A stretch of DNA of 64,000 nt from an uncultured Flavobacteriaceae bacterium (lineage in GTDB: Bacteria; Bacteroidota; Bacteroidia; Flavobacteriales; Flavobacteriaceae), in contig CANNAC010000002.1 in NCBI GenBank assembly GCA_947502495.1, positions 186,001 to 250,000 on the forward strand. The letters run 5' to 3'. Both the position numbers and the translations under genes were made by a program. The notes beneath the pieces were generated by a model. It made no database searches, was not told where the DNA came from, and saw only the letters and a list, made by a program, of their open reading frames with translations. Below, one piece after another: positions 5,134-41,611 of the stretch; positions within the stretch are counted from its first letter, which is position 1; every line of letters begins with the position of its first letter.

Positions 5134-5256
5134 GCGTTAGGGATTGCAGCGATATCCTTTTATTTTTTTTCAAAAAAGATAGCCCATTCGACTCCGCTCA
5201 GGATAAACTCCAAGCCTGGTTTTCTTCTGCTTTTTTCACAAAAGAAAAAACGCCCC
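5134..5256 (-). repeat. Mosaic structured repeat family, copy 1, with nested TTCGACTCCGCTCAGG repeat
   Basis: Minus strand GGGGCGTTTT...ACCAGGCTT...ATCTTTTTT...AAAAGGATATCGCTGCAATCCCTAACGC; closing stem GCGTT/AACGC. Confidence 0.7.
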
Positions 5257-5276
5257 AATTATAATAGCTCTAAACT

Positions 5277-5308
5277 AAAAAAGGTTTGCCATAACAGCAA
5301 ACCTTTTA
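5277..5308. terminator. Terminator hairpin downstream of trxA
   Basis: aaaaaaggtttgccataacagcaaacctttt. Confidence 0.7.
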
Positions 5309-5329
5309 TCTTTTCTTTTACTTTATATA

Positions 5330-5647
5330 CTATAAAAGTGCATCGATTGCTTCTGCATACGCAGTTTTTGGAGCAACACCTACTTGACGACCTACAACTT
5401 CTCCGTTTTGAAAAATTAAAACCGTTGGAATGTTACGTACACCATATTTGGCTGCAAATTCTTGGTTTGCATCTACGTCTAACTTACCTACAACCGCTTT
5501 ACCGTCGTATTCTGTGCTAATTTCATCAATGATTGGCCCTACCATTCTACATGGTCCACACCAAGCTGCCCAAAAGTCAACCATTACTGGTTTGTCACTT
5601 TTTAATACTGTTTCTTCAAAGTTTGCATCTGTGATTTCTAATGCCAT
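5330..5647 (-). CDS. trxA: Thioredoxin
   Basis: WAAWCGPCRMVGPI active site, full-length 105 aa. Confidence 0.95.
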   Translation of the reverse strand: MALEITDANFEETVLKSDKPVMVDFWAAWCGPCRMVGPIIDEISTEYDGKAVVGKLDVDANQEFAAKYGVRNIPTVLIFQNGEVVGRQVGVAPKTAYAEAIDALL

Positions 5648-5778
5648 AATTTTATGTTTTAATTGAGTTTTAATTCAGGTTAATATGCAATATTAGTCAA
5701 AAATTTTGCCAAAGCTTACAACCTTACAATTTGTTCTGTTTATTGCTTTATTGTTTTATTCTATGCATTTTCATTTTA

Positions 5779-5861
5779 GCGCATAAACCAGGCTTTACGT
5801 TATATCTTTTTTTTGCCATATATAGCAGCAAAAAAAAGGATGCCACTACAATCCTTTGCGC
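5779..5861 (+). repeat. Mosaic structured repeat family, copy 2
   Basis: GCGCA...ACCAGGCTTTACGTTATATCTTTTTTTT...AAAAAAAGGATGCCACTACAATCCTTTGCGC; closing stem GCGCA/TGCGC. Confidence 0.7.
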
Positions 5862-5866
5862 AAATC

Positions 5867-8800
5867 CTAATTCAATTTATAATACACTTGCTGATGATCT
5901 AATTCGCTCAACAATTCTTGACTTACTTTTACTTTTTGTTTTCGGCTAATCATGGGTAACTTTATCTGATCGGCATTATCATATACCACAAAATTTAAAG
6001 CTTGATTTCCAGGATGCATCTGCAGCAATTCCTTTAATTTTATGATTTTTTCGGCTTCTAATTCTTTTATATTTAATTGAATAGACAGTTTTTTAGCATA
6101 GGTTTCCATTACATCATGCAACAGCTGAAAACTATTAAACTGCATTCTAGGATCACTTTTCTTTCCCGTATCTTTATTTACCCAACCCTCACGAATAAAG
6201 ATCTTAACATAGACAAAGTTGTTTTGCATTAAAAAGTGTCTGAATTTTAGATACTCTTCACCAAACATTCGAAATTCAAAACTATCGGTATAATCTTCAA
6301 TGGTAAACATTGCCCAACCTTTACCCTGTTTACTTACTCTATGCTGTATATCTCTAACAACACCACCAAAGGTAAGCTCTCTATTTACATAGGTGTCCAA
6401 GTCGTTAAACAACGAAATATTCGCATTACAGAAGGTTTTCATTTCTGTTTTAAAATCATCTAAAGGATGTCCCGAAATATAAACACCTACTACTTCTCTT
6501 TCTTGTGCTAGTTTTTCCATGGTTCCCCATTCTTCACACGGAGGCACTTCGGGTTCTGCAATTTGCACATCACTGGCAGCACCAAATAAACTTACTTGTG
6601 CAGAGTTTTCATTTTCTTGATGTTTGGCACCATATTTTACTGCTTTTTCTAAAAAAGTAATACCATCACCTTCATCATGAAAATATTGTGCTCTATGCGT
6701 ATCTCCAAAACCATCAAATCCTCCAGCTAGCGCTAAGTTCTCAAAAGCTCTCTTATTTGCTGCACGTAAATCAATTCTTTTTGCTAAATCGAAAATGGAC
6801 TTATACGGTTCTTTTTCTCTGTTTTCTACAATAGTTTTTACGGCACCATGACCAACTCCTTTAATGGCACCCATCCCAAAACGAACGGCATAATCCTGGT
6901 TTACCGAAAATTTATAAAAACTTTCATTCACATCTGGACCAAGTACGTTTAATTTCATACGCTTACATTCTTCCATAAAGAAAGTAACCGATTTAATATC
7001 GTTCATATTATTAGAAAGTACAGCTGCCATATATTCTGCAGGATAGTGCGCTTTTAAATATGCGGTTTGGTAGGCAATCCACGCATAACATGTGGAGTGC
7101 GATTTATTAAAGGCGTAACTTGCAAAGGCTTCCCAATCCTTCCAGATCTTCTCTAGTTTTTTGGCATCATGCCCTTTAGCACTTGCTTGTTCAATAAACT
7201 TTGGTTTCATTTTATCTAGAACCGCAATTTGCTTTTTACCCATCGCCTTACGCAGTACATCGGCTTCACCTTTGGTGAAATCTGCTAGCTTTTGAGAAAG
7301 TAGCATTACTTGCTCTTGGTAAACTGTAATTCCGTAGGTTTCTTTAAGATATTCTTCCATCGCCGGAAGGTCATACTCTATCTCTTCATCTCCATGTTTA
7401 CGTTTTACGAAACTAGGAATATATTCCATTGGTCCAGGACGATACAAGGCATTCATGGCAATTAAATCTTCAAAAACCGTTGGCTTTAAATCTTTAAGAT
7501 GCTTCTGCATTCCTGGCGATTCATATTGAAACACACCAACCGTTTCTCCTCTTTGGAAGAGCTCGTAGGTTTTTTCATCATCTAAAGGAAAACTATCTGG
7601 ATCTAATAGAATATCATGTTTTTGCTTTACAATTTTTACGGTATCTTTAATTAAGGTTAACGTCTTTAACCCTAAGAAATCCATTTTTAGTAGTCCTGCA
7701 TCTTCTACAACCGAGTTATCGAATTGCGTAACATACAAACCAGAATCTTTTGCAACAGAAACCGGAACGAACTTGGTAATATCATCTGGTGTAATAATTA
7801 CACCACAAGCATGAATTCCTGTATTACGAACCGACCCTTCTAATGTTCTTGCAAGATTTACGGTTTCGGCCGGTAAATCGTCTCCATCCGAAATATTTAA
7901 AAGCTCATTTACTTTTTCTAAATCTTCCGCACGAAACATGCTTTTCAGCTTCTTTTCGTCGGCAGCAAAAATCTTTCCTAATTTAGACATATTAGGAATT
8001 AGCTTGGCTATTCTATCGGCGTCAAATAGTGGTAAATCTAAAACACGAGCGGTATCTCGAATAGAAGATTTAGCAGCCATCGTACCATAAGTAATAATTT
8101 GCGCTACCTGATTGCTTCCGTATTTTTCGATTACGTAATCCATAACACGACCACGACCTTCATCATCAAAATCGATATCAATATCTGGCATACTCACACG
8201 ATCCGGATTCAAGAAACGCTCAAAAAGTAAGTTATACTTTAAGGGATCAATATTGGTAATCTTTAAACAGTATGCTGCAACAGAACCTGCTGCCGAACCA
8301 CGCCCAGGACCTACGGATACATCCATATTTCTGGCTTCGCGGATAAAATCTTCTACAATAAGGAAATATCCAGGGTATCCTGTTTTTTCAATGACGCTAA
8401 GCTCAAAATCTAAACGTTCTACAACTTCTTCTGAAAGCTCTTCGCCATAGCGCTTTTTAGCGCCTTCATAAACTAAATGTCTAAGGAATTTATTTTCTCC
8501 ACGCTTTCCGTTATCAGCTTTATCTTCTTCAAAAACAAACTCTTCCGGAATATCGAAGGCAGGTAATAATACATCACGAGCCAATTGAAAAGGCTCAATT
8601 TTATCTACAACTTCTTGAATATTTGAAATCGCTTCAGGAACATCCTTAAACAACTTTTTCATGGCATCAGGAGACTTGAAATAGTATTCCTGATTTGGCA
8701 TTCCGTATCGATATCCTCGTCCTCTACCAATTGGAGTCGCCTGCTTTTCACCATCTTTTACACACAATAAAATATCGTGTGCATTCGCATCTCCTTTTTT

Positions 8801-10252
8801 ACAATAGTACGTATTATTAGTAGCTACGAGTTTAATATCGTGCTTCTTTGAAAAGTTAATTAAAACAGGATTCACTCTGTTTTCGTCATCTTGATTATGA
8901 CGCATTAACTCAATATATAAATCATCGCCAAATAGTTCTTTCCACCATAAAAGGGATTCTTCGGCCTGATTTTCTCCAACATTTAAAACCTTACTTGGTA
9001 CTTCACCATATAGATTTCCTGTTAGACAAATAAGATCTTCTCTATATTCTTCTATTAGCTTTTTATCAATTCTTGGTAAATAGTAAAATCCATTTACAAA
9101 GGCATGTGAGGATAGTTTCGCTAAGTTGTGATACCCATTTTTATTTTTAGCAATAAGTACAATTTGGTACCCATTATCTTTTCGGCTTTTATCTAAATGA
9201 TCTTCACAAACAAAAAACTCGACACCAATAATAGGCTTCATTTCGTTTAATGTTGCAGGATCACCTCTTTCTACAGCCTCTGCATTTTTAGCTTTTACAC
9301 TTTTATTATGATTGTTTACCGCTTTTACAAAATGAAAAGCTCCCATCATATTCGCATGATCGGTAAGTGCGACTGCAGACATATTATATTCTGCTGCCGA
9401 AGCCACTAAATCGGGAACACTGATAGTAGATTGTAATACCGAAAACTGCGAATGGTTATGCAAATGCATAAAGTCTACCGTTTGCAGACTCGCTATATTT
9501 TCTTTTATTTCTTGCGAAGAAAGATCTATCGCTTGTGCTTTTTGAATTCGTTCATTAATCTTAGCACTTTCGCGCTTCAGATTAATATGTTTTAAACCTA
9601 TTAGCTGAATCGTTTTTGGATTGGCTTCCGAAAAATTCTGAAAATAATCCTCTGGAACATCCAACTGTTCTAGGGTATATTGCTCTCTTCGTATTAGCTC
9701 GAAAAAACAACGCGTAGTTGCCTCCACATCTGCGGTTGCATTATGCGCTTCCCCAAAAGGAGTATCAAATAAAAACTGATGCAACTCGGTTAAGGTTGGT
9801 AATTTAAACTTACCATATCTACCTCCTGGAAGCTCACACAAACTAGCAGTATGTTCGGTACAGGTATCTAAAACAGGAAGTTCTTGTAATGGATTTGCTA
9901 CGTCACCCCGCACAAATTCGGCTCCCATAATATTGAGGTCAAACTTTACATTCTGACCAACCACAAACTTCGTTTTCCCTAAAGCTTCATTAAATTTCTC
10001 TAAAACCTCGGCTAAAGGCACACCTTGTTCTTGTGCTAATTCGGTAGAAATTCCGTGAATTTTCTCCGCATCATAAGGGATATTAAACCCTTCTGGTTGT
10101 ACTAAATAATCTTGACTTTCAATACAGTTCCCCATAGCATCGTGCAATTGCCATGCTATCTGTATACATCGAGGCCAATTATCTGTATCGGTAATTGGAG
10201 CATCCCAACGTTTGGGTAAACCAGTAGTTTCAGTATCAAAAATTAAGTACAT
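5867..10252 (-). CDS. dnaE: DNA polymerase III subunit alpha with N-terminal DEDDh 3'-5' exonuclease domain
   Basis: N-term FDTETTGLPKRW ... HNATADVEATTRCF exonuclease motifs; then PHP (FMHLHNHSQFSVL), PDIDIDFDDEGRGRVMDYV polymerase motif. Confidence 0.95.
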   Translation of the reverse strand: MYLIFDTETTGLPKRWDAPITDTDNWPRCIQIAWQLHDAMGNCIESQDYLVQPEGFNIPYDAEKIHGISTELAQEQGVPLAEVLEKFNEALGKTKFVVGQNVKFDLNIMGAEFVRGDVANPLQELPVLDTCTEHTASLCELPGGRYGKFKLPTLTELHQFLFDTPFGEAHNATADVEATTRCFFELIRREQYTLEQLDVPEDYFQNFSEANPKTIQLIGLKHINLKRESAKINERIQKAQAIDLSSQEIKENIASLQTVDFMHLHNHSQFSVLQSTISVPDLVASAAEYNMSAVALTDHANMMGAFHFVKAVNNHNKSVKAKNAEAVERGDPATLNEMKPIIGVEFFVCEDHLDKSRKDNGYQIVLIAKNKNGYHNLAKLSSHAFVNGFYYLPRIDKKLIEEYREDLICLTGNLYGEVPSKVLNVGENQAEESLLWWKELFGDDLYIELMRHNQDDENRVNPVLINFSKKHDIKLVATNNTYYCKKGDANAHDILLCVKDGEKQATPIGRGRGYRYGMPNQEYYFKSPDAMKKLFKDVPEAISNIQEVVDKIEPFQLARDVLLPAFDIPEEFVFEEDKADNGKRGENKFLRHLVYEGAKKRYGEELSEEVVERLDFELSVIEKTGYPGYFLIVEDFIREARNMDVSVGPGRGSAAGSVAAYCLKITNIDPLKYNLLFERFLNPDRVSMPDIDIDFDDEGRGRVMDYVIEKYGSNQVAQIITYGTMAAKSSIRDTARVLDLPLFDADRIAKLIPNMSKLGKIFAADEKKLKSMFRAEDLEKVNELLNISDGDDLPAETVNLARTLEGSVRNTGIHACGVIITPDDITKFVPVSVAKDSGLYVTQFDNSVVEDAGLLKMDFLGLKTLTLIKDTVKIVKQKHDILLDPDSFPLDDEKTYELFQRGETVGVFQYESPGMQKHLKDLKPTVFEDLIAMNALYRPGPMEYIPSFVKRKHGDEEIEYDLPAMEEYLKETYGITVYQEQVMLLSQKLADFTKGEADVLRKAMGKKQIAVLDKMKPKFIEQASAKGHDAKKLEKIWKDWEAFASYAFNKSHSTCYAWIAYQTAYLKAHYPAEYMAAVLSNNMNDIKSVTFFMEECKRMKLNVLGPDVNESFYKFSVNQDYAVRFGMGAIKGVGHGAVKTIVENREKEPYKSIFDLAKRIDLRAANKRAFENLALAGGFDGFGDTHRAQYFHDEGDGITFLEKAVKYGAKHQENENSAQVSLFGAASDVQIAEPEVPPCEEWGTMEKLAQEREVVGVYISGHPLDDFKTEMKTFCNANISLFNDLDTYVNRELTFGGVVRDIQHRVSKQGKGWAMFTIEDYTDSFEFRMFGEEYLKFRHFLMQNNFVYVKIFIREGWVNKDTGKKSDPRMQFNSFQLLHDVMETYAKKLSIQLNIKELEAEKIIKLKELLQMHPGNQALNFVVYDNADQIKLPMISRKQKVKVSQELLSELDHQQVYYKLN

Positions 10253-10330
10253 AAAGGTTTTTTCTTAAGAATAAAAGAGAACGATAAAATTACGAAAAAT
10301 TGCCCTTTTAGTCACGGAAAGTTATAAACA

Positions 10331-10359
10331 AATAGCGCAACCTAAATGGTTGCGCTATT
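10331..10359. terminator. Hairpin terminator
   Basis: aatagcgcaacc-taaat-ggttgcgctatt. Confidence 0.7.
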
Positions 10360-10380
10360 AAAATCTATTTCATTAGAATT

Positions 10381-10833
10381 TTAGGACACTAATTCTTCAT
10401 GTACTTTTACAGTATTGATTGCTGCTTGCACTGCATTTTTCTGTTTGTTTAACAAAGAATCAATAGATGGCGGGAATATCATATCTGAACTAATAATTTC
10501 ATTATACTCCGCTAAACTAGCTTTTTCTCCTCGTAGCGCCTCTGCTAAAATAACTTCTTCATCATTAGAAATGAATGTAGATTTTAGTATCATCCAATTT
10601 CTATGCATTACCCCTTTAAAACTCCCCGAATCTTCAGGGATTTCGCCATACATTAAGATTTCTGTTCTTAAATCTTTAGCAAATTCACTTCTTTCTGAAG
10701 CTCTTCTTTTAAAGAACTTTTTTAAATTTTTACTTTCTACGTTATCGATAGCATTTAAATACCCTTTTTCGGCATCGTAATTTTTTACTAATAACTCATT
10801 TAATTGGTTTGAAATTTTTTCTGTGAACTTCAT
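10381..10833 (-). CDS. PA2169/DUF2383 family four-helix-bundle protein
   Basis: Ferritin-like length and pattern (NELLVKNYDAEKGYLNAIDNVE...FKGVMHRNWMILKS). Confidence 0.75.
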   Translation of the reverse strand: MKFTEKISNQLNELLVKNYDAEKGYLNAIDNVESKNLKKFFKRRASERSEFAKDLRTEILMYGEIPEDSGSFKGVMHRNWMILKSTFISNDEEVILAEALRGEKASLAEYNEIISSDMIFPPSIDSLLNKQKNAVQAAINTVKVHEELVS

Positions 10834-10976
10834 ATATCTTTTACATTTTTAAATCTCAATAGCTTTCTTTATAGATGCGTATTGTTTCACATCTGCAATA
10901 ACAACCTAATACAAATAAGGCGTCATGTCAAGGGATTTAACAATGTTTATGAAGGACTTAAGAGTTTTTAACAAAA

Positions 10977-11006
10977 AAAAAGCGCATCCCATTAGGATGC
11001 GCTTTT
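10977..11006. terminator. Hairpin terminator
   Basis: aaaagcgcatcccattaggatgcgctttt. Confidence 0.7.
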
Positions 11007-11026
11007 CTATATCTTTATTAAATCTT

Positions 11027-11890
11027 TTAGTTACAAGAATACCCTGCAGTTTCTAAAGCTTGAATATAATCTTCAAAAGAAGTTCCTGCTAAATCAAAAT
11101 TAGTAGCCGGAGCTCCATTGATCGACACGTTCATTGTTCCATCACCATTGTCACAATATTCGGTATCCGGAAAGGAAGTAATAGAACATGTTTGACAAAC
11201 TCCAGGAGTTGTACCGCCACCACAATCTAAACCATCTATTATACCTTGCAACGTATTTGTGTCATCTCCACAACTAGTAATTTGTTGCATTAATGCCGCT
11301 TGATATGCATTACAAACCGCAGCATAATCAGAACTCGTAGCATCTGTAGCATTATAAATAGCTAACGCAGCTTCTGTTGCAGTAACCGCATCATCACAAG
11401 AAACCACTGTAGCACTTACACCACCAGAAACCGGAATTTCATAAAAAACACCCTGACTATAATTCACTTTATTTAAACCAGAAGCAGAAAAGGCATTAAA
11501 CCAAAATGTTCCCGATACTTTATTTCCAGAATCGCTATATCCAGTGATTACAATTTCACCATCCGCAGGATAAATTTGAACCGTTTCATCTGGCTCATTA
11601 TTTGTAGAATGTATAACATCTTGAATACTAGTAAAAACAGCCTCACTTGCACTTCCTTCACCAAGAATATACGTACCAACTGCAGCTCCCATTTTTAATA
11701 AAACGGTTTCACTTCCTCGTCCTCCACTAATGATTAGCTGTCCGCTACCATTAATCTCAGCACTATAATAATCTGACCTCCATAAAGCACCGTCTTTTTC
11801 ACCTTGTAAAGCTGGCGTATTAAACTCAAGTTCTTCACCACAACTCACCATAAATAAAGCGGAAACAACAAATAGGAATATCTTTTTCAT
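11027..11890 (-). CDS. Lipoprotein, flavobacterial hypothetical (DUF6252-like)
   Basis: ORF 11027..11914; start moved to MKKIFLFVVSALFMVSCGEE lipobox. Family call tentative. Confidence 0.65.
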   Translation of the reverse strand: MKKIFLFVVSALFMVSCGEELEFNTPALQGEKDGALWRSDYYSAEINGSGQLIISGGRGSETVLLKMGAAVGTYILGEGSASEAVFTSIQDVIHSTNNEPDETVQIYPADGEIVITGYSDSGNKVSGTFWFNAFSASGLNKVNYSQGVFYEIPVSGGVSATVVSCDDAVTATEAALAIYNATDATSSDYAAVCNAYQAALMQQITSCGDDTNTLQGIIDGLDCGGGTTPGVCQTCSITSFPDTEYCDNGDGTMNVSINGAPATNFDLAGTSFEDYIQALETAGYSCN

Positions 11891-11948
11891 AAATTTTATA
11901 TAATTTGAGAGCATAAAAATAGCATAAAAAAATGATTAATATAAAAAG

Positions 11949-11977
11949 TTGAATATAAATTATTTATAGTATCTTTG
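11949..11977 (+). promoter_or_regulatory. Bacteroidetes-type promoter upstream of rpsP
   Basis: TTG (11949-11951), 18 bp spacer, TATCTTTG (11970-11977), matching TANNTTTG. Confidence 0.6.
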
Positions 11978-12025
11978 CACACTTATTAATAACCAGAGGT
12001 CGAGAACCTCAATGAATTAATTATT

Positions 12026-12523
12026 ATGCCTGTAAAAATTAGATTACAAAGACACGGTAAAAAAGGAAAACCTTATTACTGGATCGTAGCAGCAGATGCT
12101 CGCGCGAAAAGAGATGGTAAATACCTAGAGAAATTAGGTGCTTACAACCCAAACACTAACCCAGCAACTATTGACTTAAATGTTGATGGCGCTGTAACAT
12201 GGTTAGAAAATGGTGCTCAACCTACTGACACAGCTAAAGCTATTTTATCTTACAAAGGTGTTTTGTTAAAAAAACATTTAAAAGGTGGAGTAACTAAAGG
12301 TGCTTTAACTGAAGAGCAAGCAGAAGCGAAGTTTACTGCTTGGTTAGAAGAAAAAGAAGGTAAAGTTGGTGCAAAAACAGATGGTTTAGCTAAGGCGGAA
12401 GCAGAAGCAAAAGCAAAAGCTTTTGAAGCTGAAAAAGCTGCTAACGAAGCTAGAATTGCAGCAGCAACTCCAGTTGTAGAAGAAGCTCCTGCTGAAGAAG
12501 CTTCTAACGAAGAAGAAGAATAA
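12026..12523 (+). CDS. rpsP: 30S ribosomal protein S16 with acidic/Ala-rich C-terminal extension
   Basis: [42 protein letters not shown]. Confidence 0.96.
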
Positions 12524-12545
12524 AAAAAATATTTTTTATACTTTT

Positions 12546-12579
12546 AAACTCCAATACAATTTCTGTGTTGGAGTTTTTT
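12546..12579 (+). terminator. Terminator after rpsP
   Basis: aaactccaatac-aatttct-gtgttggagtttttt. Confidence 0.7.
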
Positions 12580-12673
12580 ATTTATTACCTCTAAAGAAAA
12601 GTGGTTTTAATTAAAAATGACATAAATTTGAAAGAGATTCCCTTTTCAAGGGAACATAAAATTATATTTTTCA

Positions 12674-13204
12674 ATGAAAAAAGAAGATTGTTTTTTTCTA
12701 GGTAAAATTGTAAAAAAGTACAGTTTTAAAGGAGAAGTTTTAGTAAAACTAGATACCGACGAACCAGATATTTATGATGGATTAGAATCTGTTTTTATCG
12801 ATTTAAGAGGAAACCTTATTCCTTTTTTTATTGAACATGCACAATTGCATAAATCGGAATTATTACGCATACGCTTTGAAGATGTAAATACAGAAGAAGA
12901 TGCAGATGCTATATTAAAAAGTGATCTCTATTTACCTCTAGAATTTCTACCAAAACTAGAAGGCGATAAATTCTACTTTCATGAAATTATAGGATTTACT
13001 GTAAAAGACACCAACTTTGGTGATGTTGGAATTATTACTGGAATTAACGACACCACAGCACAAGCGCTTTTTGAAATAGACAGAGATGGTATTGAAATAT
13101 TAATTCCAATGAACGATCATTTCATCCAAAAAGTGGACAAAGAAAATAAAGTGATTCTTGTGGAAACACCAGAAGGCTTGATTGATTTGTATTTAGAAGA
13201 ATAA
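12674..13204 (+). CDS. rimM: Ribosome maturation factor RimM
   Basis: Downstream of rpsP; LGKIVKKYSFKGEVLVKLDTD N-term and PRC-barrel C-term. Confidence 0.93.
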   Translation: MKKEDCFFLGKIVKKYSFKGEVLVKLDTDEPDIYDGLESVFIDLRGNLIPFFIEHAQLHKSELLRIRFEDVNTEEDADAILKSDLYLPLEFLPKLEGDKFYFHEIIGFTVKDTNFGDVGIITGINDTTAQALFEIDRDGIEILIPMNDHFIQKVDKENKVILVETPEGLIDLYLEE

Positions 13205-13246
13205 GCCCATCCAAAATCCTTCCCAAAAAAAAGGACTTTTACTTTT

Positions 13247-13960
13247 ATGAACAAACCATTTAAATTCAAAGAGTTTCAAGTAAGTCAAGACCAATGTGCC
13301 ATGAAAATTGGTACAGATGGGGTATTACTTGGTGCTTGGACTTCGGTAAAACAAAATCCTTTTGCAATTCTGGATATTGGTGCAGGAACTGGTGTTCTAT
13401 CTTTAATGTTAGCACAACGCAGTCAGGCAGAAGTGATTGATGCCATGGAAATTGACGAGCATGCGTATGAGCAATGTGTTGATAATTTTGAAAATGCACC
13501 TTGGGCAGATCGACTTTTTTGCTATCACGCTGCATTAGAAGAATTCACCGAAGAGATTGAAGATAAATACGATTTGATTATATCGAATCCTCCTTTTTAT
13601 TCGGAAGACTTTAAAACCGAAAACACACAACGTGATTTAGCACGTTTTACAGATGCGATGCCTTTTCATCATTTAGTAGAAAGCGTTGCTGCTTTATTAA
13701 TAGAAGATGGTATTTTCTCGGTTGTTATTCCGTTTAAGGAAGAGGCTGTTTTTATAGAATTAGCATCCAAAGTACAATTATTTCCGAATAGAATTTTGCA
13801 TGTCAAGGGCTCGCCTACCTCCGAAATAAAACGAAGTCTTTTAGAATTTTCTTTCCGCGAAAGCGATATAGAGATACAAGAACTCACTATAGAAACTACA
13901 AGACACCAATACACAGAAGACTACATACATTTGACGAAAGATTTTTATCTTAAAATGTGA
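13247..13960 (+). CDS. tRNA1(Val) (adenine(37)-N6)-methyltransferase family
   Basis: FKFKEFQVSQDQCAMKIGTDGVLLGAW, ILDIGAGTGVLSLMLAQR, ISNPPFY. Confidence 0.88.
   Translation: MNKPFKFKEFQVSQDQCAMKIGTDGVLLGAWTSVKQNPFAILDIGAGTGVLSLMLAQRSQAEVIDAMEIDEHAYEQCVDNFENAPWADRLFCYHAALEEFTEEIEDKYDLIISNPPFYSEDFKTENTQRDLARFTDAMPFHHLVESVAALLIEDGIFSVVIPFKEEAVFIELASKVQLFPNRILHVKGSPTSEIKRSLLEFSFRESDIEIQELTIETTRHQYTEDYIHLTKDFYLKM
13851..13865. repeat. Dispersed palindromic repeat CTTTCCGCGAAAGCG, inside a CDS
   Basis: tttccgcgaaagcg also at 16889 and, inverted, at about 52033. Confidence 0.6.
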
Positions 13961-14072
13961 TATTTATATTTGGCAATGAAAACGATTTCGTTACTTTTGT
14001 TAAACGTATAAAATAACGCCTTCTATTTTGATTAATTCTCAAAAATTAGAAGCTTAAAATATCATAAAAAGA

Positions 14073-15251
14073 ATGAAAGCCGATTTATTCGAAGCACCAG
14101 ATTATTACAACCTAGACGAATTACTTACGGAAGAACACAAATTAGTTCGTGATGCCGCAAGAGAATGGGTAAAACGTGACGTCTCTCCTATTATTGAAGA
14201 CTATGCACAAAGAGCAGAATTTCCAACACAAATAGTTAAAGGATTAGCCGAAATTGGGGCTTTTGGACCTTACATTCCGGAAGAGTATGGAGGTGCTGGA
14301 TTAGACCAAATTTCTTATGGTTTAATCATGCAAGAAATAGAACGTGGTGATTCTGGAGTTCGTAGTACAGCTTCTGTACAGTCATCTTTAGTGATGTATC
14401 CAATCTGGAAATACGGAAACGAAGAACAACGCAATAAATACTTACCAAAATTAGCTTCGGGAGAATGGATTGGTTCTTTTGGATTAACAGAACCGGATCA
14501 TGGTAGTAATCCGGGCGCAATGGTTACCAACTTTAAAGATATGGGAGATCATTATCTTTTAAATGGTGCAAAAATGTGGATTTCGAATGCACCTTTTTGT
14601 AATATCGCTGTTGTTTGGGCTAAAAATGAAGAAGGTCGTATTCATGGTCTCGTTGTAGAACGTGGCATGGAAGGCTTCACTACGCCAGAAACACATAATA
14701 AATGGTCACTTAGAGCATCTGCTACTGGAGAATTAATTTTCGACAACGTAAAAGTGCCAAAAGAAAACTTATTACCAAATAAATCTGGTCTTGGCGCTCC
14801 ATTAGGGTGTTTAGATTCGGCGCGTTTTGGTATTGCTTGGGGAGCAATTGGTGCTGCCATGGATTGTTATGACACTGCTTTACGTTACAGTAAAGAACGT
14901 ATTCAGTTTGGTAAGCCAATTGGACAGTTTCAATTACAGCAAAAGAAATTAGCAGAAATGGTTACCGAAATCACAAAAGCACAATTATTAGCCTGGCGAC
15001 TTGGTGTAATGCGTGAGAATGGAACGGCTACCTCCGCACAAATTTCTATGGCTAAACGAAATAATGTAGATATGGCTTTAACTATTGCTCGTGACGCTAG
15101 ACAAATGTTAGGTGGTATGGGAATTAGTGGCGAATACTCCATTATGAGACATATGATGAACTTAGAAAGTGTGGTTACTTATGAAGGGACACACGATATT
15201 CACTTACTAATTACAGGAATGGATGTTACTGGCCTAAACGCCTTCAAATAG
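14073..15251 (+). CDS. Acyl-CoA dehydrogenase, glutaryl-CoA dehydrogenase-like
   Basis: GSFGLTEPDHGSNPGAM, RIQFGKPIGQFQLQQKKLAEM, QMLGGMGISGEYSIMRHMMNLESVVTYEGTHDIH. Confidence 0.92.
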   Translation: MKADLFEAPDYYNLDELLTEEHKLVRDAAREWVKRDVSPIIEDYAQRAEFPTQIVKGLAEIGAFGPYIPEEYGGAGLDQISYGLIMQEIERGDSGVRSTASVQSSLVMYPIWKYGNEEQRNKYLPKLASGEWIGSFGLTEPDHGSNPGAMVTNFKDMGDHYLLNGAKMWISNAPFCNIAVVWAKNEEGRIHGLVVERGMEGFTTPETHNKWSLRASATGELIFDNVKVPKENLLPNKSGLGAPLGCLDSARFGIAWGAIGAAMDCYDTALRYSKERIQFGKPIGQFQLQQKKLAEMVTEITKAQLLAWRLGVMRENGTATSAQISMAKRNNVDMALTIARDARQMLGGMGISGEYSIMRHMMNLESVVTYEGTHDIHLLITGMDVTGLNAFK

Positions 15252-15268
15252 TGGCTGAGCCACATCTA

Positions 15269-15420
15269 ATTATTGCACTCGGTTGGAAACTCTACGAGTA
15301 ATAATTAAGTGCCGTTTGATTATTGCACTCGGTTGGAAACTCTACGAGTAATAATTAAGTGCCGTTTGATTATTGCACTCGGTTGGAAACTCTAGTAGTA
15401 ATAATTAAATATCGTTTTAT
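15269..15420. repeat. Three contiguous 50-bp tandem repeats, each containing an imperfect hairpin
   Basis: attattgcactcggttggaaactctacgagtaataattaagtgccgtttg; tattgcactc at 15271, 15321 and 15371; ATTATT(GC)ACTC pairs with GAGTAATAAT. Confidence 0.92.
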
Positions 15421-15465
15421 TGGACTCCGACGGAATTATTATTTATAAGATAAAAGATATACTAT

Positions 15466-15497
15466 AAAAATGCTTCTCCAAATGGAGAAGCATTTTT
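15466..15497. terminator. Hairpin terminator
   Basis: aaaaatgcttctccaaatggagaagcattttt. Confidence 0.65.
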
Positions 15498-15507
15498 TGT
15501 TGAAAAT

Positions 15508-16425
15508 TTGCTTACATTTACTACTATGTTTTCAGCAAAAAAACGGTTAGATAAGGCGTACAAAGAAGCAAAAATTTTAGATTTTGATAACGATTCAAAA
15601 TTTATTCTTTTTAGCGATTGTCATCGTGGAGATAATAGTTTTGCAGATGATTTTGCAAACAATAGAAATATTTATTTTCATGCTTTAAAGAATTATTATG
15701 CCGAAGGATTTAGTTATGCCGAAATTGGGGATGGCGATGAACTTTGGGAAAACTTATCTTTTACACCAATATTAGAAGCACATAAAAACGTGTATCTGCT
15801 AATGAAATTATTTCATGAGCAAGAGCGTTTGCATATGATTTGGGGAAATCATGATATGGTATATCGCAATCCGAAGTATGTGGAAAAAAATCTATCTACT
15901 TATTTTGATGAAAAAATTGGTGAGGATGTCGAACTGTTTTGCGGTATTAAATACCATGAAGGTATTATATTAAAACATACCAAAACGCAGCAAGAAGTTT
16001 TTTTAACGCATGGGCATCAAGCAGATTGGTGGAACTACACCTTTTGGAAATGGAGTAGATTTTTAGTCCGAGCACTTTGGAAACCTTTAAACGTTATGGG
16101 AATTGCAGACCCCACAAGTCCTGCCAAAAACTACAAAGAGCTTATTAAAGTAGAACGAAGAACAAAAAAATGGATCACAGAAAACAATAATTTAATTACT
16201 GTGGTTGGTCATACACATAGACCACGTTTTCCAGAACCTGGAGATATTGCTTTTTTTAATGATGGTAGTTGTGTACACCCAAGAAGTATTACAGGAATTG
16301 AAATTGAAAACGGTGCAATTTCCCTAATTAAATGGCAAATTGCCACATCTGAAGATGGTACACTAAAAATTGTACGTGTATTATTAGAAGGACCCAAAAA
16401 GCTAATAGACTATAAAACAGAGTGA
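15508..16425 (+). CDS. Metallophosphoesterase, UDP-2,3-diacylglucosamine diphosphatase-like
   Basis: FSDCHRGD, GDGDELWE, MIWGNHDM, LTHGHQAD, VVGHTHRPRF; start may be M at 15526. Confidence 0.85.
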   Translation: MLTFTTMFSAKKRLDKAYKEAKILDFDNDSKFILFSDCHRGDNSFADDFANNRNIYFHALKNYYAEGFSYAEIGDGDELWENLSFTPILEAHKNVYLLMKLFHEQERLHMIWGNHDMVYRNPKYVEKNLSTYFDEKIGEDVELFCGIKYHEGIILKHTKTQQEVFLTHGHQADWWNYTFWKWSRFLVRALWKPLNVMGIADPTSPAKNYKELIKVERRTKKWITENNNLITVVGHTHRPRFPEPGDIAFFNDGSCVHPRSITGIEIENGAISLIKWQIATSEDGTLKIVRVLLEGPKKLIDYKTE

Positions 16426-16432
16426 ATTATTT

Positions 16433-16544
16433 GGGCGTTACCTTTTAAAAAAAAGGTCAGGCTTTTCATTATATCTTTTTTATCTCATAGCTTTCGACTG
16501 CGCGAAACCAGACAAAAAAAGGATGCCATTTCAATCCTTAACGC
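16433..16544 (+). repeat. Mosaic structured repeat family, copy 3, with nested TTTCGACTGCGCGAAA
   Basis: GGGCGTTACCTTTTAAAAAAAAGGTCAGGCTTTTCATTATATCTTTTTT...AAAAAAAGGATGCCATTTCAATCCTTAACGC; closing stem GCGTTA/TAACGC. Confidence 0.75.
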
Positions 16545-16549
16545 AACCC

Positions 16550-16882
16550 TTAACTTTCAGGAGCAAGCTCTACCTCCAAACCTTCCATTGCTGGAGTCAT
16601 TTGAATTTGACAACCTAAACGCGAGTTTTCTTTAACATCAAATGCTTCGCTTAACATCGCTTCTTCATCATCCTGCATTTCTGGTAATTCGGTTTCACTT
16701 AACACATAACACTGACAAGATGCACACATTGCCATACCGCCACAAATACCAATGGTTCCTTCTGGAGCAAGCTCGTACGAGCGCACTACTTCCATAAGAT
16801 TCATAGCCATATCTGTTGGCGCAAGTACTTCATGTGTTACACCATCTCTATCTGTTATTTTTATGTTTATGTCTTGTTCCAT
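16550..16882 (-). CDS. 2Fe-2S ferredoxin
   Basis: GICGGMAMCASCQCYVL [2Fe-2S] motif. Confidence 0.93.
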   Translation of the reverse strand: MEQDINIKITDRDGVTHEVLAPTDMAMNLMEVVRSYELAPEGTIGICGGMAMCASCQCYVLSETELPEMQDDEEAMLSEAFDVKENSRLGCQIQMTPAMEGLEVELAPES

Positions 16883-16888
16883 CTTTAG

Positions 16889-16905
16889 TTTCCGCGAAAG
16901 CGGGA
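16889..16905. repeat. Dispersed palindromic repeat TTTCCGCGAAAGCGGGA
   Basis: Shares tttccgcgaaagcg with 13852-13865 and the inverted copy near 52033. Confidence 0.6.
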
Positions 16906-16994
16906 ATCTTTAAAATTTAATAAATAATAACGCTTCCCGACTACGCTTGAAGTGCTATTTTCTGTACATCAAAATTAATACCTTTATTTGGAGA

Positions 16995-17020
16995 GCTTTC
17001 GACTGCGCTCCAGGTGACAC
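16995..17020. repeat. Dispersed TTCGACTGCGCTC(C)AGGTGACA repeat
   Basis: gctttcgactgcgctccaggtgacac; same family as 5186, 53522 and 54286. Confidence 0.65.
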
Positions 17021-17037
17021 TAGCATTTCGATTTAAA

Positions 17038-18099
17038 TTACTCTATTTTCTTCACTACTGCTTTTGGTGACTCTTTTCTTGTACCATCAAACCCATCTAC
17101 TCCTGCAACGGTCGTGTATTTTAACACATATCTTTTTCCCGGATTGATTATCTGGTATGCAGATTGACACATTAATGTTGCTTCATGAAAACCACAAAGA
17201 ATTAATTTCAATTTTCCTGGATAGGTATTTACATCTCCAATAGCGTAGATTCCTGGTATGTTTGTTTGGTAATCTAATGCATTATTTACTTTAATGGCAT
17301 TTTTTTCTATTTCTAATCCCCAATTTGCAATGGGTCCTAGTTTTGGTGAGAGTCCGAAAAGAGGAATAAAATGATCACATTGTAGCTCATACTCTTTTTC
17401 TATGTGCTCTGCTTGTTTAACAACTATTCCTTCTAATTTTTCATCTCCTAAAATACCAACTACTTCTGCTGGTGTAATTAGGTCTATTTTCCCATTGTTT
17501 TTAAGTTCTTGTACTTTTTCTACAGAATCTAGATGTCCGCGAAATTCGCTTCTTCTATGTATTAAAGTTACTGAGCTTGCAATATCACTTAAAAAGATAC
17601 TCCAATCTAGTGCAGAATCTCCACCACCAGCAATGACCACTTTTTTATTTCTATAAAATTCTGGTTCTTTAATCATATACTCTACTCCTTTGTCTTCAAA
17701 GTCTGCGATATTATGAATTAAAGGCTTTCGTGGTTCAAAGCTTCCTAGTCCACCAGCGATGGCTACTACTGGCGCTTGGTGTTTTGTTCCTTTATTGGTG
17801 GTAACAATAAAGCTACCATCTTCTTGTTTCTCTATGGTTTCTGCGCGTTCACCAAGTGTAAATCCTGGTTCGAACTGTTTGCATTGTTCCATTAATTTAT
17901 GCGTTAAATCGCCAGCAAGAATTTCTGGATATGCTGGAATATCATAAATAGGCTTTTTAGGATACAGCTCTGAGCACTGTCCGCCTTGTTGTGGTAACGC
18001 ATCAATTAAATGACATTTTAATTTCAATAAGCCAGCTTCAAAAACAGCGAATAATCCTGTTGGACCAGCTCCTATTATAAGTATATCTGTTTTAATCAT
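17038..18099 (-). CDS. Ferredoxin--NADP(+) reductase (thioredoxin reductase-like type)
   Basis: ORF 17038..18177; likely start MIKTDILIIGAGPTGLFAVFEAGLLKLKCHLIDALPQQGGQCSELYP at 18099. Confidence 0.9.
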   Translation of the reverse strand: MIKTDILIIGAGPTGLFAVFEAGLLKLKCHLIDALPQQGGQCSELYPKKPIYDIPAYPEILAGDLTHKLMEQCKQFEPGFTLGERAETIEKQEDGSFIVTTNKGTKHQAPVVAIAGGLGSFEPRKPLIHNIADFEDKGVEYMIKEPEFYRNKKVVIAGGGDSALDWSIFLSDIASSVTLIHRRSEFRGHLDSVEKVQELKNNGKIDLITPAEVVGILGDEKLEGIVVKQAEHIEKEYELQCDHFIPLFGLSPKLGPIANWGLEIEKNAIKVNNALDYQTNIPGIYAIGDVNTYPGKLKLILCGFHEATLMCQSAYQIINPGKRYVLKYTTVAGVDGFDGTRKESPKAVVKKIE

Positions 18100-18141
18100 A
18101 CTAATGCCCGCAAAAGTGGGTATCTCTTTAATACGCATAAA

Positions 18142-18168
18142 CCTGTGAGGTTTTAAAAACCTCACAGG
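18142..18168. repeat. Perfect 13-bp inverted repeat CCTGTGAGGTTTT-A-AAAACCTCACAGG
   Basis: Read directly; upstream of the reductase start. Confidence 0.85.
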
Positions 18169-18252
18169 AGTACACATTATATATTATTATTCAACTTTGT
18201 TTTTACAAAGTACTTGTTTTTAGTTGCCAAATTTCATGACTTTTATCAGTTT

Positions 18253-18349
18253 GCGTGAAGCCTGCCTGCCGGCAGGCAGGGATTGAACGGCTTGTTTGAG
18301 CTCCTCGCAGAGAGCGAGTAGTGAAAGCCTGACCCTTGCGGTCACGCCC
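18253..18349 (-). repeat. Mosaic structured repeat family, copy 4, with CCTGCCTGCCGGCAGGCAGG palindrome
   Basis: Minus strand GGGCGTGACCGCAAGGGTCAGGCTTTCACTA...CGTTCAATCCCTGCCTGCCGGCAGGCAGGCTTCACGC; closing stem GCGTGA/TCACGC. Confidence 0.7.
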
Positions 18350-18351
18350 AA

Positions 18352-18594
18352 CTAAGCTTCTATATTAATAACCTGTTCTATTTGTGGTGCATACTTTTTA
18401 ATAGTCATTTCTACACCTGATTTTAGGGTCATTTGATTTACACTACAACCAACACAAGCACCTTCTAACTGCACCTTTACCACTTTACCATCTTCAATAG
18501 AAAGCAATGAGATATCGCCTCCATCACTTTGTAAAAACGGACGAATTTCATCTAAGGCTTTCTCTACATTTAATCTTAGTTCTTCTGTAGTCAT
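18352..18594 (-). CDS. NifU-like C-terminal domain Fe-S biogenesis protein
   Basis: LRPFLQSDGGD-like and LEGACVGCSVNQMTLKSGVE (CxxC) motifs. Confidence 0.9.
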   Translation of the reverse strand: MTTEELRLNVEKALDEIRPFLQSDGGDISLLSIEDGKVVKVQLEGACVGCSVNQMTLKSGVEMTIKKYAPQIEQVINIEA

Positions 18595-18597
18595 TTA

Positions 18598-19734
18598 TTA
18601 TTTTTTTACCGCTGAACATCCAGCCATTGTTGTTATTTTAATTGCTTCGGTTGGAGGTAAATCATCATTTCTTCGTACCACTTCTTGCACAACGTTCTGC
18701 GTTATTTTTTCGAATGCTTGCTCTAATGCTGTTGCTGTTTGCAGTGCTGCTGGATGACCAATATCTCCTGCTTCACGAATGCTTTGTATTAAAGGCAACT
18801 CTCCTAAAAACGGTACTTGTAAATCTTCGGCAAGGTTTTTTGCTCCTTGTTTACCAAAGATATAGTATTTATTTTCTGGCAATTCTTCTGGTGTAAAGTA
18901 AGCCATATTTTCAATTATTCCTAAAACTGGAACGTTAATGCTTTCTTGTTGAAACATTGCTACTCCTTTTTTAGCATCTGCTAAAGCTACGTTTTGTGGT
19001 GTACTTACAATAACAGCTCCTGTTATAGGTAGCGATTGCATGATACTTAGGTGAATATCTCCTGTTCCTGGAGGTAAATCTAAAAGTAAAAAATCTAATT
19101 CTCCCCAAGCTGCATCAAAAATCATTTGGTTTAATGCTTTTGCTGCCATTGGTCCACGCCAAACAACTGCTTGGTCTGGTTTTGTAAAAAAGCCGATAGA
19201 AAGAATTTTAACGCCGTAATTTTCTACAGGTTTCATTTTAGACTTTCCGTCTACATTTACGGCTAACGGTTTTTCGTTTACTACATCAAACATAATTGGA
19301 ATAGAAGGCCCATAAATATCGGCATCTAAGATTCCTACTTTAAATCCCATTTTAGCCAAAGTAACGGCAAGGTTTGCGGTAACTGTTGATTTACCAACAC
19401 CTCCTTTTCCGGAAGCTACTGCGACTATGTTTTGAATTCCAGGAATCGATTTTCCTTTAATGACATTAGGAGCAGATTTTGTTGGTGCTTCTACTTTAAT
19501 GTTAACGGTTATCTTTGCTTTTTCATAAACTAATCTATGAATCGTCTGTAGTATTTCTACTTCGGTTTTCTTTTTTGCTTGTAAGCTTGGGTTTGTAATT
19601 GTAATATCTACAACAACCTCATCGCCAAAAGTTATTACATTGGTAACGGCACCACTTTCTACCATGTTTTGTCCTTCGCCAGGAGCAGAAATGGTTTCTA
19701 ATGCTTTTAATATGTCTTGTTTGTTGATTTTCAT
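18598..19734 (-). CDS. Mrp/NBP35-family Fe-S cluster carrier ATPase
   Basis: IVAVASGKGGVGKSTVTANLAV P-loop; LLLDLPPGTGDIHLS. Confidence 0.94.
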   Translation of the reverse strand: MKINKQDILKALETISAPGEGQNMVESGAVTNVITFGDEVVVDITITNPSLQAKKKTEVEILQTIHRLVYEKAKITVNIKVEAPTKSAPNVIKGKSIPGIQNIVAVASGKGGVGKSTVTANLAVTLAKMGFKVGILDADIYGPSIPIMFDVVNEKPLAVNVDGKSKMKPVENYGVKILSIGFFTKPDQAVVWRGPMAAKALNQMIFDAAWGELDFLLLDLPPGTGDIHLSIMQSLPITGAVIVSTPQNVALADAKKGVAMFQQESINVPVLGIIENMAYFTPEELPENKYYIFGKQGAKNLAEDLQVPFLGELPLIQSIREAGDIGHPAALQTATALEQAFEKITQNVVQEVVRRNDDLPPTEAIKITTMAGCSAVKK

Positions 19735-29725: not shown

Positions 29726-29776
29726 TTCCCTTATGTAATTAGTCTTTGATTCAAACGACTCATAAAAAAACAACTT

Positions 29777-30338: not shown

Positions 30339-30424
30339 ACAAATTTTCGAGTTTTGATTTAAAAGAAAAATCCTTCTTCCCTTAATAAAAAGGAAGAAGG
30401 ATTTGAAATAATAGCGATAAAAAA

Positions 30425-31732: not shown

Positions 31733-31819
31733 TTCTTGTATATTATTCTAAAGTCTAGCAAAGATATGTTTATCCTTCAAAAGAGGAAAGAGAATAACAA
31801 AAAAGACTATTTTTGTTTT

Positions 31820-32827: not shown

Positions 32828-32828
32828 T

Positions 32829-34660: not shown

Positions 34661-34669
34661 GTCTTAATT

Positions 34670-35401: not shown

Positions 35402-35499
35402 TTAATTTTAGCAAATGTAAGCTATTTAAAAATTACTTTTTTTTAAATTTTCCTTAAAAAATGGAAGAAGAATAGGAATATTTATAATAATTTTACCGT

Positions 35500-36150: not shown

Positions 36151-36173
36151 GGTATAAAAAAGCTAGCTATTAT

Positions 36174-36923: not shown

Positions 36924-36941
36924 TTTCATACTATTCCATAA

Positions 36942-36976
36942 AAAAATCGCAACATATACATGTTGCGATTTTTTTT
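36942..36976. terminator. Bidirectional hairpin terminator
   Basis: aaaaaatcgcaacatatacatgttgcgatttttttt. Confidence 0.75.
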
Positions 36977-36995
36977 GGTTAATACTTTAATTCTT

Positions 36996-37898: not shown

Positions 37899-37989
37899 AA
37901 TTAATAGCTTTATAATTTATCCCATAAAGTTAAGTTATAAAAAAACACCTACAAGACCCTTTTAACAAGTATAACCGTAGTTCATCTAT

Positions 37990-39603: not shown

Positions 39604-39666
39604 ATTTTAATTGTGTTGTTTAAGATGCAAAATTAAAACTTTATTTTAAAGTAGCAGTCTAAAACC

Positions 39667-40128
39667 TTAATTATCCGCCTTTAGTTTTAAAAAGTTTATC
39701 AACATTATTACCCAAACCATAATTAACAAAAGGCCTCCCAAAGGTGTAATTAATGCAATTTTAGTAAAATCTACACTAGTCAATGCATTTGTAGCCAAGC
39801 CATAAATAGATCCTGAAAAAAACAAAACCCCAACAACTAGTAGTATATAAATAGTTTTTTTAGCTTTTTCTGGTATCACAGGTACACTTCCTAGTATTAA
39901 AAGTAAAAATGCATGATACATTTGGTAACGTACCCCAGTTTCAAAAGACTGTAAAGATGCTTCCGAAATTAATTCTTTTAAGCCATGCGCAGCAAATGCA
40001 CCTAGTATAATTCCTATAATGCCAAAAACAGCTCCAGTAATTAATAATTTTTTGTTCATATAATTATGTATTTCGTTTAATTTAGCCACAGTATTTATTA
40101 CATTCGTAATTACAAAATTACTCAACAA
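39667..40128 (-). CDS. DUF423 membrane protein
   Basis: GIIGIILGAFAAHGLKELISEASLQSFETGVRYQMYHAFLLL; start may be internal MNKKLLITG. Confidence 0.85.
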   Translation of the reverse strand: MLSNFVITNVINTVAKLNEIHNYMNKKLLITGAVFGIIGIILGAFAAHGLKELISEASLQSFETGVRYQMYHAFLLLILGSVPVIPEKAKKTIYILLVVGVLFFSGSIYGLATNALTSVDFTKIALITPLGGLLLIMVWVIMLINFLKLKADN

Positions 40129-40136
40129 TTCTCATT

Positions 40137-41501
40137 ATGCGAAAGATTTTAGTCATTGGTTCTGGAAAATCATCCTCCTACCTTATTAAATATTTATTAG
40201 ACAAATCAAATACAGAAAACTTATTAATTATAGTTGGCGATATAAACTTTACGCACGCTAAAAAATTAATTGGTGATCATGAAAATGCGCAAGCTATTTT
40301 ATTAGATGTTTTTGATAAAAGCTCCCGTCAAGAAGCCATACAAAACGCAGACATTGTAGTCTCTATGCTACCTGCTAGATTTCATATAGAAGTTGCAAAA
40401 GACTGTATTACTTTTAATAAGAATATGGTAACCGCTTCTTATATAAGTCCAGAAATGCAAGCATTAGATAAGGCTGCAAAAGACAAAGGGCTTGTTTTTA
40501 TGAACGAAATTGGCGTCGACCCCGGAATAGATCACATGAGTGCCATGCAAGTAATTGATAGCATTAGAGATAAAGGCGGCGAGTTAATTTTATTCGAATC
40601 CTTTACAGGAGGCCTAGTGGCCCCAGAAAGTGATAATAATTTATGGAACTACAAATTCACATGGAATCCTAGAAACGTGGTGACTGCAGGTCAAGGCGGT
40701 GCTGGAAAGTTTTTACAAGAAGACACCTATAAATATATACCATACAATAGACTTTTTAGACGTACCGAATTTTTAGAAGTGGAAGGCTACGGTAAATTTG
40801 AAGGCTATGCCAACAGAGATTCCCTTAAATACCAAAGTGTTTACGGTTTAGAATCTATAAAAACACTTTATAGAGGTACTATTAGACGCGTTGGTTTTTC
40901 TAGAGCATGGAATGTATTCGTACAATTAGGTATGACAGATGACAGCTATACTATAGACGACAGTGAAAACATGACCTATCGTGATTTTGTAAATGCATTT
41001 TTACCTTATAGTCCTACAGATTCTGTTGAACTTAAATTTAGACACGCACTTAAAATAGACCAAGATGATGTGGTTTGGGATAAATATTTAGAGTTAGATC
41101 TTTTTAGTAAAACTAAAATGGTAGCACTTAAAAAAGCAACGCCTGCACAAATTTTACAAAAAATCTTAATGGATAGCTGGACATTAGATCCAGACGATAA
41201 AGATATGATTGTTATGTACCACAAGTTTGGGTACGTGTTAGATGGTAAAAAACACCAAATAGATGCAACCATGGTAACCATTGGTGAGGACCAAACGTAT
41301 ACCGCAATGGCAAAAACAGTTGGCCTACCAGTAGCAATAGCAACACTAGCTATTCTAAACGAAAAAATAACAACTCCAGGTGTACAAATCCCAATCAACA
41401 AAGAGGTTTACACACCAATTTTAAAAGAATTAGAAGATTACGGTATTATTTTTAACGAAAAAGAAGTGCCTTATCTAGGTTACAATCCTTTACACGTTTA
41501 A
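40137..41501 (+). CDS. Saccharopine dehydrogenase family protein
   Basis: ILVIGSGKSSSYLIKYLL; MNEIGVDPGIDHMSAM. Confidence 0.92.
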   Translation: MRKILVIGSGKSSSYLIKYLLDKSNTENLLIIVGDINFTHAKKLIGDHENAQAILLDVFDKSSRQEAIQNADIVVSMLPARFHIEVAKDCITFNKNMVTASYISPEMQALDKAAKDKGLVFMNEIGVDPGIDHMSAMQVIDSIRDKGGELILFESFTGGLVAPESDNNLWNYKFTWNPRNVVTAGQGGAGKFLQEDTYKYIPYNRLFRRTEFLEVEGYGKFEGYANRDSLKYQSVYGLESIKTLYRGTIRRVGFSRAWNVFVQLGMTDDSYTIDDSENMTYRDFVNAFLPYSPTDSVELKFRHALKIDQDDVVWDKYLELDLFSKTKMVALKKATPAQILQKILMDSWTLDPDDKDMIVMYHKFGYVLDGKKHQIDATMVTIGEDQTYTAMAKTVGLPVAIATLAILNEKITTPGVQIPINKEVYTPILKELEDYGIIFNEKEVPYLGYNPLHV

Positions 41502-41511
41502 ACTTTTTATA

Positions 41512-41611
41512 GCGTTTCCCTACTTCGTTTCAAAAGACGAAGTAGGGTCAAGCTTTCCGTTATATCTTTTTCTCGTACCTCAAAAAAGGATGCCACTACA
41601 ATCCTTAACGC
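41512..41611 (+). repeat. Mosaic structured repeat family, copy 5
   Basis: GCGTTTCCCTACTTCGTTTCAAAAGACGAAGTAGGGTCAAGCTTTCCGTTATATCTTTTT...AAAAAAGGATGCCACTACAATCCTTAACGC. Confidence 0.78.

What the first reader, a model, noticed from the sequence alone, without database searches (positions are those of the whole stretch)
5134..41611. Dispersed 'mosaic' structured repeat family (5 copies) with compensatory variation in its closing stem
Copies at 5134-5256(-), 5779-5861(+), 16433-16544(+), 18253-18349(-) and 41512-41611(+) share an ordered architecture. The order is: 5' closing strand GCGTT/GCGCA/GCGTGA, a variable arm usually ending in GGTC or ACC, AGGCTTT(A/C)CGTTATATCTTTTT (less conserved in copies 1 and 4), a variable insert, AAAAAAGGATGCCACTACAATCCTT, then 3' closing strand AACGC/TGCGC/TCACGC. 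The closing strands covary: GCGTTA/TAACGC, GCGCA/TGCGC, GCGTGA/TCACGC. Arm 1 also stays paired while its sequence changes completely (ACCTTTT...AAAAGGT; CCCTACTTCG...CGAAGTAGGG; GACC-GCAA-GGGTC). This argues for selection on RNA or DNA structure rather than on sequence. I have an impression that similar elements occur in other Flavobacteriaceae but cannot verify that or name a family.
Basis: partly seen in the sequence, partly recalled or inferred. Interest (0 to 1): 0.75.

Follow-up and report, generated by a model that had tools for sequence, protein, structure and literature searches.

The report
Folded gene-end repeats with swappable caps
The five repeats belong to a large family of self-folding DNA elements that sit just after genes across Flavobacteriaceae; four are the catalogued but unexplained Rfam motif Flavo-1, the fifth is an uncatalogued sister class that replaces Flavo-1 at the same chromosomal spots, and together they point to a structural element of gene ends whose function is still unknown.

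Summary
A fourth (5134-5253) is a Flavo-1-type element broken up by an insert. The copy at 18253-18349 is a different class, absent from Rfam 15, which I modelled (R1). The own genome has at least 39 Flavo-1 copies over cut-off and at least 22 class-2 hits. Flavo-1 occurs in 157 of 251 family genomes and class 2 in 143; class 2 also occurs elsewhere in the class Bacteroidia.

Both classes share one frame: closing stem P1, a variable hairpin arm P3, and a core P2 built on conserved G-A mismatches. Covariation is very strong (score 0.535 vs 0.201 shuffled). At orthologous sites in one genus the P1 frame persists, while tips, arms or the whole P2 are exchanged, including Flavo-1 for class 2. In this family the elements concentrate 4-17 nt after stop codons and are rare between divergent genes. 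G.T outnumbers A.C 20:1 in core stems (11:0 where flanking genes transcribe only the other strand), so the folded strand is usually not the mRNA. No promoter, terminator or nearby RAYT partner was found.

Best reading: REP/BIME-like folded-DNA elements of gene ends, vertically kept. Function is inferred.

The parts
5134..5253 (+). Copy 1: class 1 (Flavo-1-type) element; P1 GCGTT/AACGC, core interrupted in its 3' strand by a CTCCGCTCAGGATAAACTCC-type insert; between thioredoxin (5330-5647 -) and a DUF58 gene (4182-5111 -)
   Evidence: the site is occupied in all 7 genus genomes with different tips and arms
5779..5861 (-). Copy 2: class 1, P1 GCGCA/TGCGC, short arm; directly after the stop of dnaE (DNA polymerase III alpha, 5867-10252 -)
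   Evidence: Rfam RF01705, 59.8 bits; class 2 at this site in G253, empty in G254
16435..16544 (-). Copy 3: class 1, P1 GCGTTA/TAACGC, arm ACCTTTT..AAAAGGT; between convergent metallophosphatase (15508-16425 +) and ferredoxin-like (16550-16882 -) genes
   Evidence: Rfam RF01705, 51.8 bits; arm replaced in G170 while P1 and core are kept
18253..18347 (+). Copy 4: class 2 element (GAGCTC..CTCGCAGAGAGCGAG cap), P1 GCGTGA/TCACGC; 4 nt after the stop of a NifU-domain gene (18352-18594 -)
   Evidence: R1 71 bits at 18276-18331; present in all 7 genus genomes; no Rfam match
18261..18280 (.). 20-bp palindrome CCTGCCTGCCGGCAGGCAGG inserted in copy 4
   Evidence: absent at this point in G251, G252, G254, G255; inserted twice in G170
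41512..41611 (-). Copy 5: class 1, P1 GCGTT/AACGC, arm CCCTACTTCG..CGAAGTAGGG; 10 nt after the stop of a saccharopine-dehydrogenase-like gene (40137-41501 +)
   Evidence: Rfam RF01705, 48.6 bits; core and arm replaced in G170 (L027 vs L097)

Best explanation
These are old, multi-copy, self-folding intergenic elements that work at the DNA level at the ends of genes, in the manner of REP/BIME elements. One strand (the Rfam strand, F) can fold into a three-way junction: a short closing stem P1, a core P2 made of 2-3 bp helices alternating with G.A-mismatch loops (GNA/GNA in Flavo-1, tandem GA in class 2), and a free-form hairpin arm P3. Shown: the fold is conserved by compensatory change, the frame is kept at its chromosomal position, and caps and arms are exchanged as whole hairpins, including Flavo-1 for class 2. 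Also shown: in Flavobacteriaceae the elements sit just after stop codons, and the fold is on F even where flanking genes transcribe only the other strand. Inferred: the folded or extruded F strand is what a host factor reads, or it keeps the template from re-pairing with RNA once ribosomes leave at the stop codon, so insulating the gene end. The exchanges would arise by recombination or template switching between dispersed copies. The factor is unknown.
For: Covariation 0.535 vs 0.201 shuffled for class 1 and 0.391 vs 0.119 for class 2. The A.G mismatch flips to G.A in three copies. G.T:A.C = 20:1 in the core and 5:0 in P1 over 216 copies; 11:0 in copies between two anti-F genes. Stop codon within 17 nt: own class 1 15/27 vs 7.0 expected, class 2 14/22 vs 5.0 expected. 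Orthologous sites are mostly occupied across the genus, with class 1/class 2 switches at sites L008, L010, L018, L026. Stem changes between own and G170 keep pairing: 10 paired changes, 2 broken, with flanks at 83% identity. Class 1 and class 2 co-occur across genomes, odds ratio 13, p 5e-19. No conserved Bacteroidetes -7 promoter motif upstream of F; no terminator-like site on the elements within 5000-19000. An F. psychrophilum transcriptome study found Flavo-1 hits indifferently sense or antisense and often untranscribed (PMC9723704).
Against: No direct DNA-level evidence; the F strand could act as an antisense RNA. F shows no lagging-strand preference in G170 (about 20 of 49; judged by eye, coarse skew, no test). 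Outside the family, stop adjacency and orientation bias are not seen in 20 class-2 loci, so the placement rule may be local. Tight stop spacing (11-12 nt) at conserved loci such as sufD-sufS would also fit an mRNA-level role.
Confidence: 0.4

Rival explanations
1. A 3'-UTR or intercistronic element that works in the sense mRNA next to the stop codon (stability, ribosome release, translational attenuation), as reported for E. coli REPs within 15 nt of a stop.
For: Stop distance peaks at 11-12 nt at conserved loci in many genera: sufD-sufS, hmgA-hppD, phoH-purC, aroC and others, nearly always with the same orientation. E. coli REPs closer than 16 nt to the stop lower translation (PMC12306157).
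Against: If the sense strand folded, its G-U pairs would appear as A.C on F; among elements between two anti-F genes the count is G.T 11, A.C 0. The conserved G.A loops exist only on F. Class-2 loci outside the family show no stop adjacency.
Confidence: 0.22
2. A non-autonomous mobile element (REP/MITE type) moved in trans through its folded single strand; in-place conservation is slow decay.
For: Multi-copy; at least 125 copies in G128; patchy presence across the class Bacteroidia; conserved ends; REP-like location.
Against: Only two empty sites found among the orthologous sites examined; most examined G170 copies have an own-genome orthologue. RAYT/IS200 transposases: weak genome-level association (odds ratio 3.0) but absent from 30 of 46 high-copy genomes; G170 has 42 copies and no hit at E up to 1e-6. 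Only 1 of 20 RAYT loci scanned has Flavo-1 nearby and class 2 is near at most one. Neighbours of distant copies show no shared mobile enzyme in the families listed.
Confidence: 0.2
3. A small-RNA gene family transcribed from F, as filed in Rfam (Gene; sRNA).
For: The fold is on F; non-canonical G.A loops are typical RNA modules; Rfam RF01705 type.
Against: No conserved promoter upstream of F; F is antisense to both neighbours in the commonest context; the transcriptome study saw no strand preference and many untranscribed copies (PMC9723704); dozens to over a hundred divergent copies per genome.
Confidence: 0.13

Closest known systems
Rfam RF01705 Flavo-1 RNA (Weinberg et al. 2010, PMC2864571)
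   Same: Copies 2, 3 and 5 score above the gathering cut-off; same P2 core, pairing and strand; Bacteroidetes.
   Different: Rfam models 76 positions of the core; it does not model the outer P1/P3 frame of these copies, does not contain class 2, and files the motif as an sRNA gene.
REP/BIME elements (Enterobacteria and others; PMC2817692, PMC12306157)
   Same: Short, many-copy, imperfectly palindromic, intergenic, often just after stop codons, mosaic.
   Different: No RAYT link found locally, no REP hairpin with a conserved 5' tetranucleotide identified; three-way junction with G.A-loop core, swappable caps, conserved positions across genera.
Bacteroidetes RAYT-REPs (GCGCGGATTTGYAATCCGTG family around the RAYT in locus L060)
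   Same: Palindromic intergenic repeats in the same genome.
   Different: Different sequence; surround their transposase gene, which Flavo-1 and class 2 do not.

Membership tests
Rfam Flavo-1 (RF01705) | Score above the curated gathering cut-off of 42 bits | tested here: met
   Copies 2, 3, 5: 59.8, 51.8, 48.6 bits
Rfam Flavo-1 (RF01705) | Same for copies 1 and 4 | tested here: not met
   No match at E up to 1; copy 1 has the Flavo-1 frame by eye with an insert, copy 4 is class 2
Rfam Flavo-1 (RF01705) | Expressed small RNA | not testable with these tools
   No expression data here; published data equivocal (PMC9723704)
REP/BIME | Many short imperfect palindromes, intergenic, near gene 3' ends | tested here: met
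REP/BIME | Linked REP-associated tyrosine transposase flanked by the repeats | tested here: not met
   own RAYT has other repeats
REP/BIME | Conserved 5' tetranucleotide (GTAG/GGAG) before the hairpin | tested here: not met
   Flank consensus before the core is TTGCGTTA or TTTAGCC
MITE | Target-site duplication at clean insertion points | tested here: inconclusive
   Two empty sites found, both with diverged flanks; no duplication could be read
Intrinsic terminator | G+C-rich stem followed by a T run | tested here: not met
   No terminator-like hit on copies 1-4; class 2 lacks a T run after its stem on either strand by reading the sequence
Small-RNA gene with its own promoter | Conserved Bacteroidetes promoter (TAnnTTTG) at fixed distance upstream of F | tested here: not met
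   8 scattered matches in 134 copies, only two of them at the same distance

The most novel reading that the evidence does not exclude
Probability: 0.3. Interest if true: 0.8.

Novelty: new variant of a known kind. Interest (0 to 1): 0.6.

Why it matters
Flavo-1 has stood in Rfam since about 2010 as an sRNA of unknown function, and a transcriptome study found no clue to its role. The tests here give it a frame, a sister class that Rfam lacks, a position rule, a folding strand and an evolutionary behaviour (cap swapping at fixed sites). That moves the question from 'which sRNA is it' to 'what reads a folded strand at gene ends', which can be tested in a laboratory Flavobacterium.

Tried and rejected
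RAYT/IS200 mobilisation: own RAYT surrounded by an unrelated repeat family; family-wide Y1_Tnp search shows a weak genome-level association but many high-copy genomes without hits and no local link. Integron attC: end motifs in the wrong order by inspection, not pursued. Intrinsic terminator: no overlap. F-strand promoter: none conserved. Lagging-strand single-strandedness: no bias in G170 (counted by eye). Papers: no further work on Flavo-1 function found in the held library.

Full report
Observation. The five copies are present as described. Rfam identifies copies 2, 3 and 5 as RF01705 Flavo-1, on the opposite strand, here called F. The own genome has 39 hits over the cut-off, G170 of the same genus 40, G128 about 100 over the cut-off and 125 in all, and 157 of 251 family genomes have at least one.

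Anatomy. Parsed on F, the elements read GCGTTA|ppp|A|qq|GNA|rr|tip|rr'|GNA|qq'|G|ppp'|G|arm|TAACGC|CCAAA. P1 and the arm P3 lie outside Rfam's 76-position model for this type. A canonical type with P1 TAGCC../..GGAAATAGC and mostly no arm, closest to Rfam's consensus, sits at a few loci shared between genera. In 40 own copies, 99.6% of cells pair and the covariation score is 0.535 against 0.201 in shuffles; slid versions reach at most 0.137. The p, q and r variants show no significant association among copies (27 combinations in 48 copies, permutation p 0.29, 0.14, 0.87). Caveat: the 38-column alignment was assembled from my parse, which favours pairing.

Class 2. Copy 4 belongs to a second class: same P1, same arm, same closing p pairs and A.G step, but GA/GA instead of GNA/GNA loops and a conserved GAGCTC..GCGAG cap. 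Its pairs covary too (0.391 vs 0.119). Rfam 15 has no match at E up to 1 in the copies tested. Model R1 (rough E-values) finds it in 143 of 251 family genomes and in 30 of 295 class-level genomes, 26 of them outside the family. The frame, with P1 covarying, is visible in distant copies. Class 1 and class 2 presence are strongly associated (odds ratio 13.4).

Evolution in place. Most of the 30 G170 copies examined have an own-genome copy between the same flanks. Between 20 such pairs the p/q/r pairs show 127 unchanged, 10 changed but still paired, 2 broken; left flanks are 83% identical. Tips and arms are exchanged as wholes (L014/L087, L022/L100, L019/L096, L027/L097). Across six genus relatives nearly all the examined sites are occupied. 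At four sites the P2 domain is class 1 in some species and class 2 in others: L018, L010, L026 and L008, which is window copy 2. Empty sites: copy 2 in G254 and probably L030 in G255 (one contiguous 71%-identity match). Copy 3 is replaced by unrelated sequence in four of the relatives, so losses occur.

Placement. In own, G170, other-genus and class-2 sets, elements between divergent genes are 8 of 117. Where an anti-F gene ends at the element, the stop lies within 17 nt in 15/27 (own), 7/20 (G170), 8/14 (other genera) and 14/22 (class 2), against 7.0, 3.5, 3.0 and 5.0 expected for random placement in the gap. At conserved canonical loci the spacing is 11-12 nt; these loci are not independent observations. 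Genes were called as long open reading frames, not by a gene finder. Locus names (sufD-sufS and others) rest on reading the protein termini and general knowledge, not on a family search.

Which strand folds. Over 216 class-1 copies the core has G.T 20 and A.C 1, P1 5 and 0, arm 37 and 21, tip 124 and 104. Class 2 gives 5 and 2. In the context where both flanking genes are on the anti-F strand the core count is 11 to 0. So core and P1 are selected on F, usually the non-mRNA strand, while arm and tip look like generic palindromes. Caveats: the Rfam search model is on F, which penalises A.C, and copies share ancestry.

Mechanism. An sRNA read from F lacks a conserved promoter and fits poorly with published transcription (PMC9723704). 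A sense-mRNA element conflicts with the strand test. A mobile element conflicts with the fixed positions and lack of a local partner. I therefore favour a DNA-level element of gene ends that works like REP/BIME elements without being shown to be one. The reading of the folded template strand as an insulator against RNA-DNA re-pairing is inference.

Limits. No R-scape, expression or probing data were available.

Noticed in passing
window 18261-18280; loci L072, L075, L080, L081, L104, L144, L154, L337: A 20-bp perfect palindrome CCTGCCTGCCGGCAGGCAGG is inserted inside or beside many of these elements, present or absent between orthologous copies; it looks like an independent tiny palindromic repeat.
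   Followed up: partly
L060 650-2100: A 184-aa RAYT-like Y1 transposase surrounded by many GCGCGGATTTGYAATCCGTG repeats, apparently its own REP family.
   Followed up: partly
tips of L003, L014, L022, L024, L066, L068, L080, L081: Recurrent tip modules (TTCGAGTGA..TATCGAGAACAAGT; GCTGCCATATATGGC; GAGGCACGAG) shared by unrelated copies and, for the latter two, by other genera.
   Followed up: partly
window 11985-12021: Rfam S16-Flavobacteria ribosomal protein leader upstream of the gene at 12026-12523.
   Followed up: no
G128 (L170-L198): A 5.4-Mb genome with at least 125 canonical Flavo-1 hits and no class-2 hit, each copy with its own compensated stem and tip.
   Followed up: partly
window 5082-5133 and equivalents in G251, G170, G253, G255: The stretch left of copy 1 differs completely between species pairs while gene and element on either side are conserved.
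   Followed up: no
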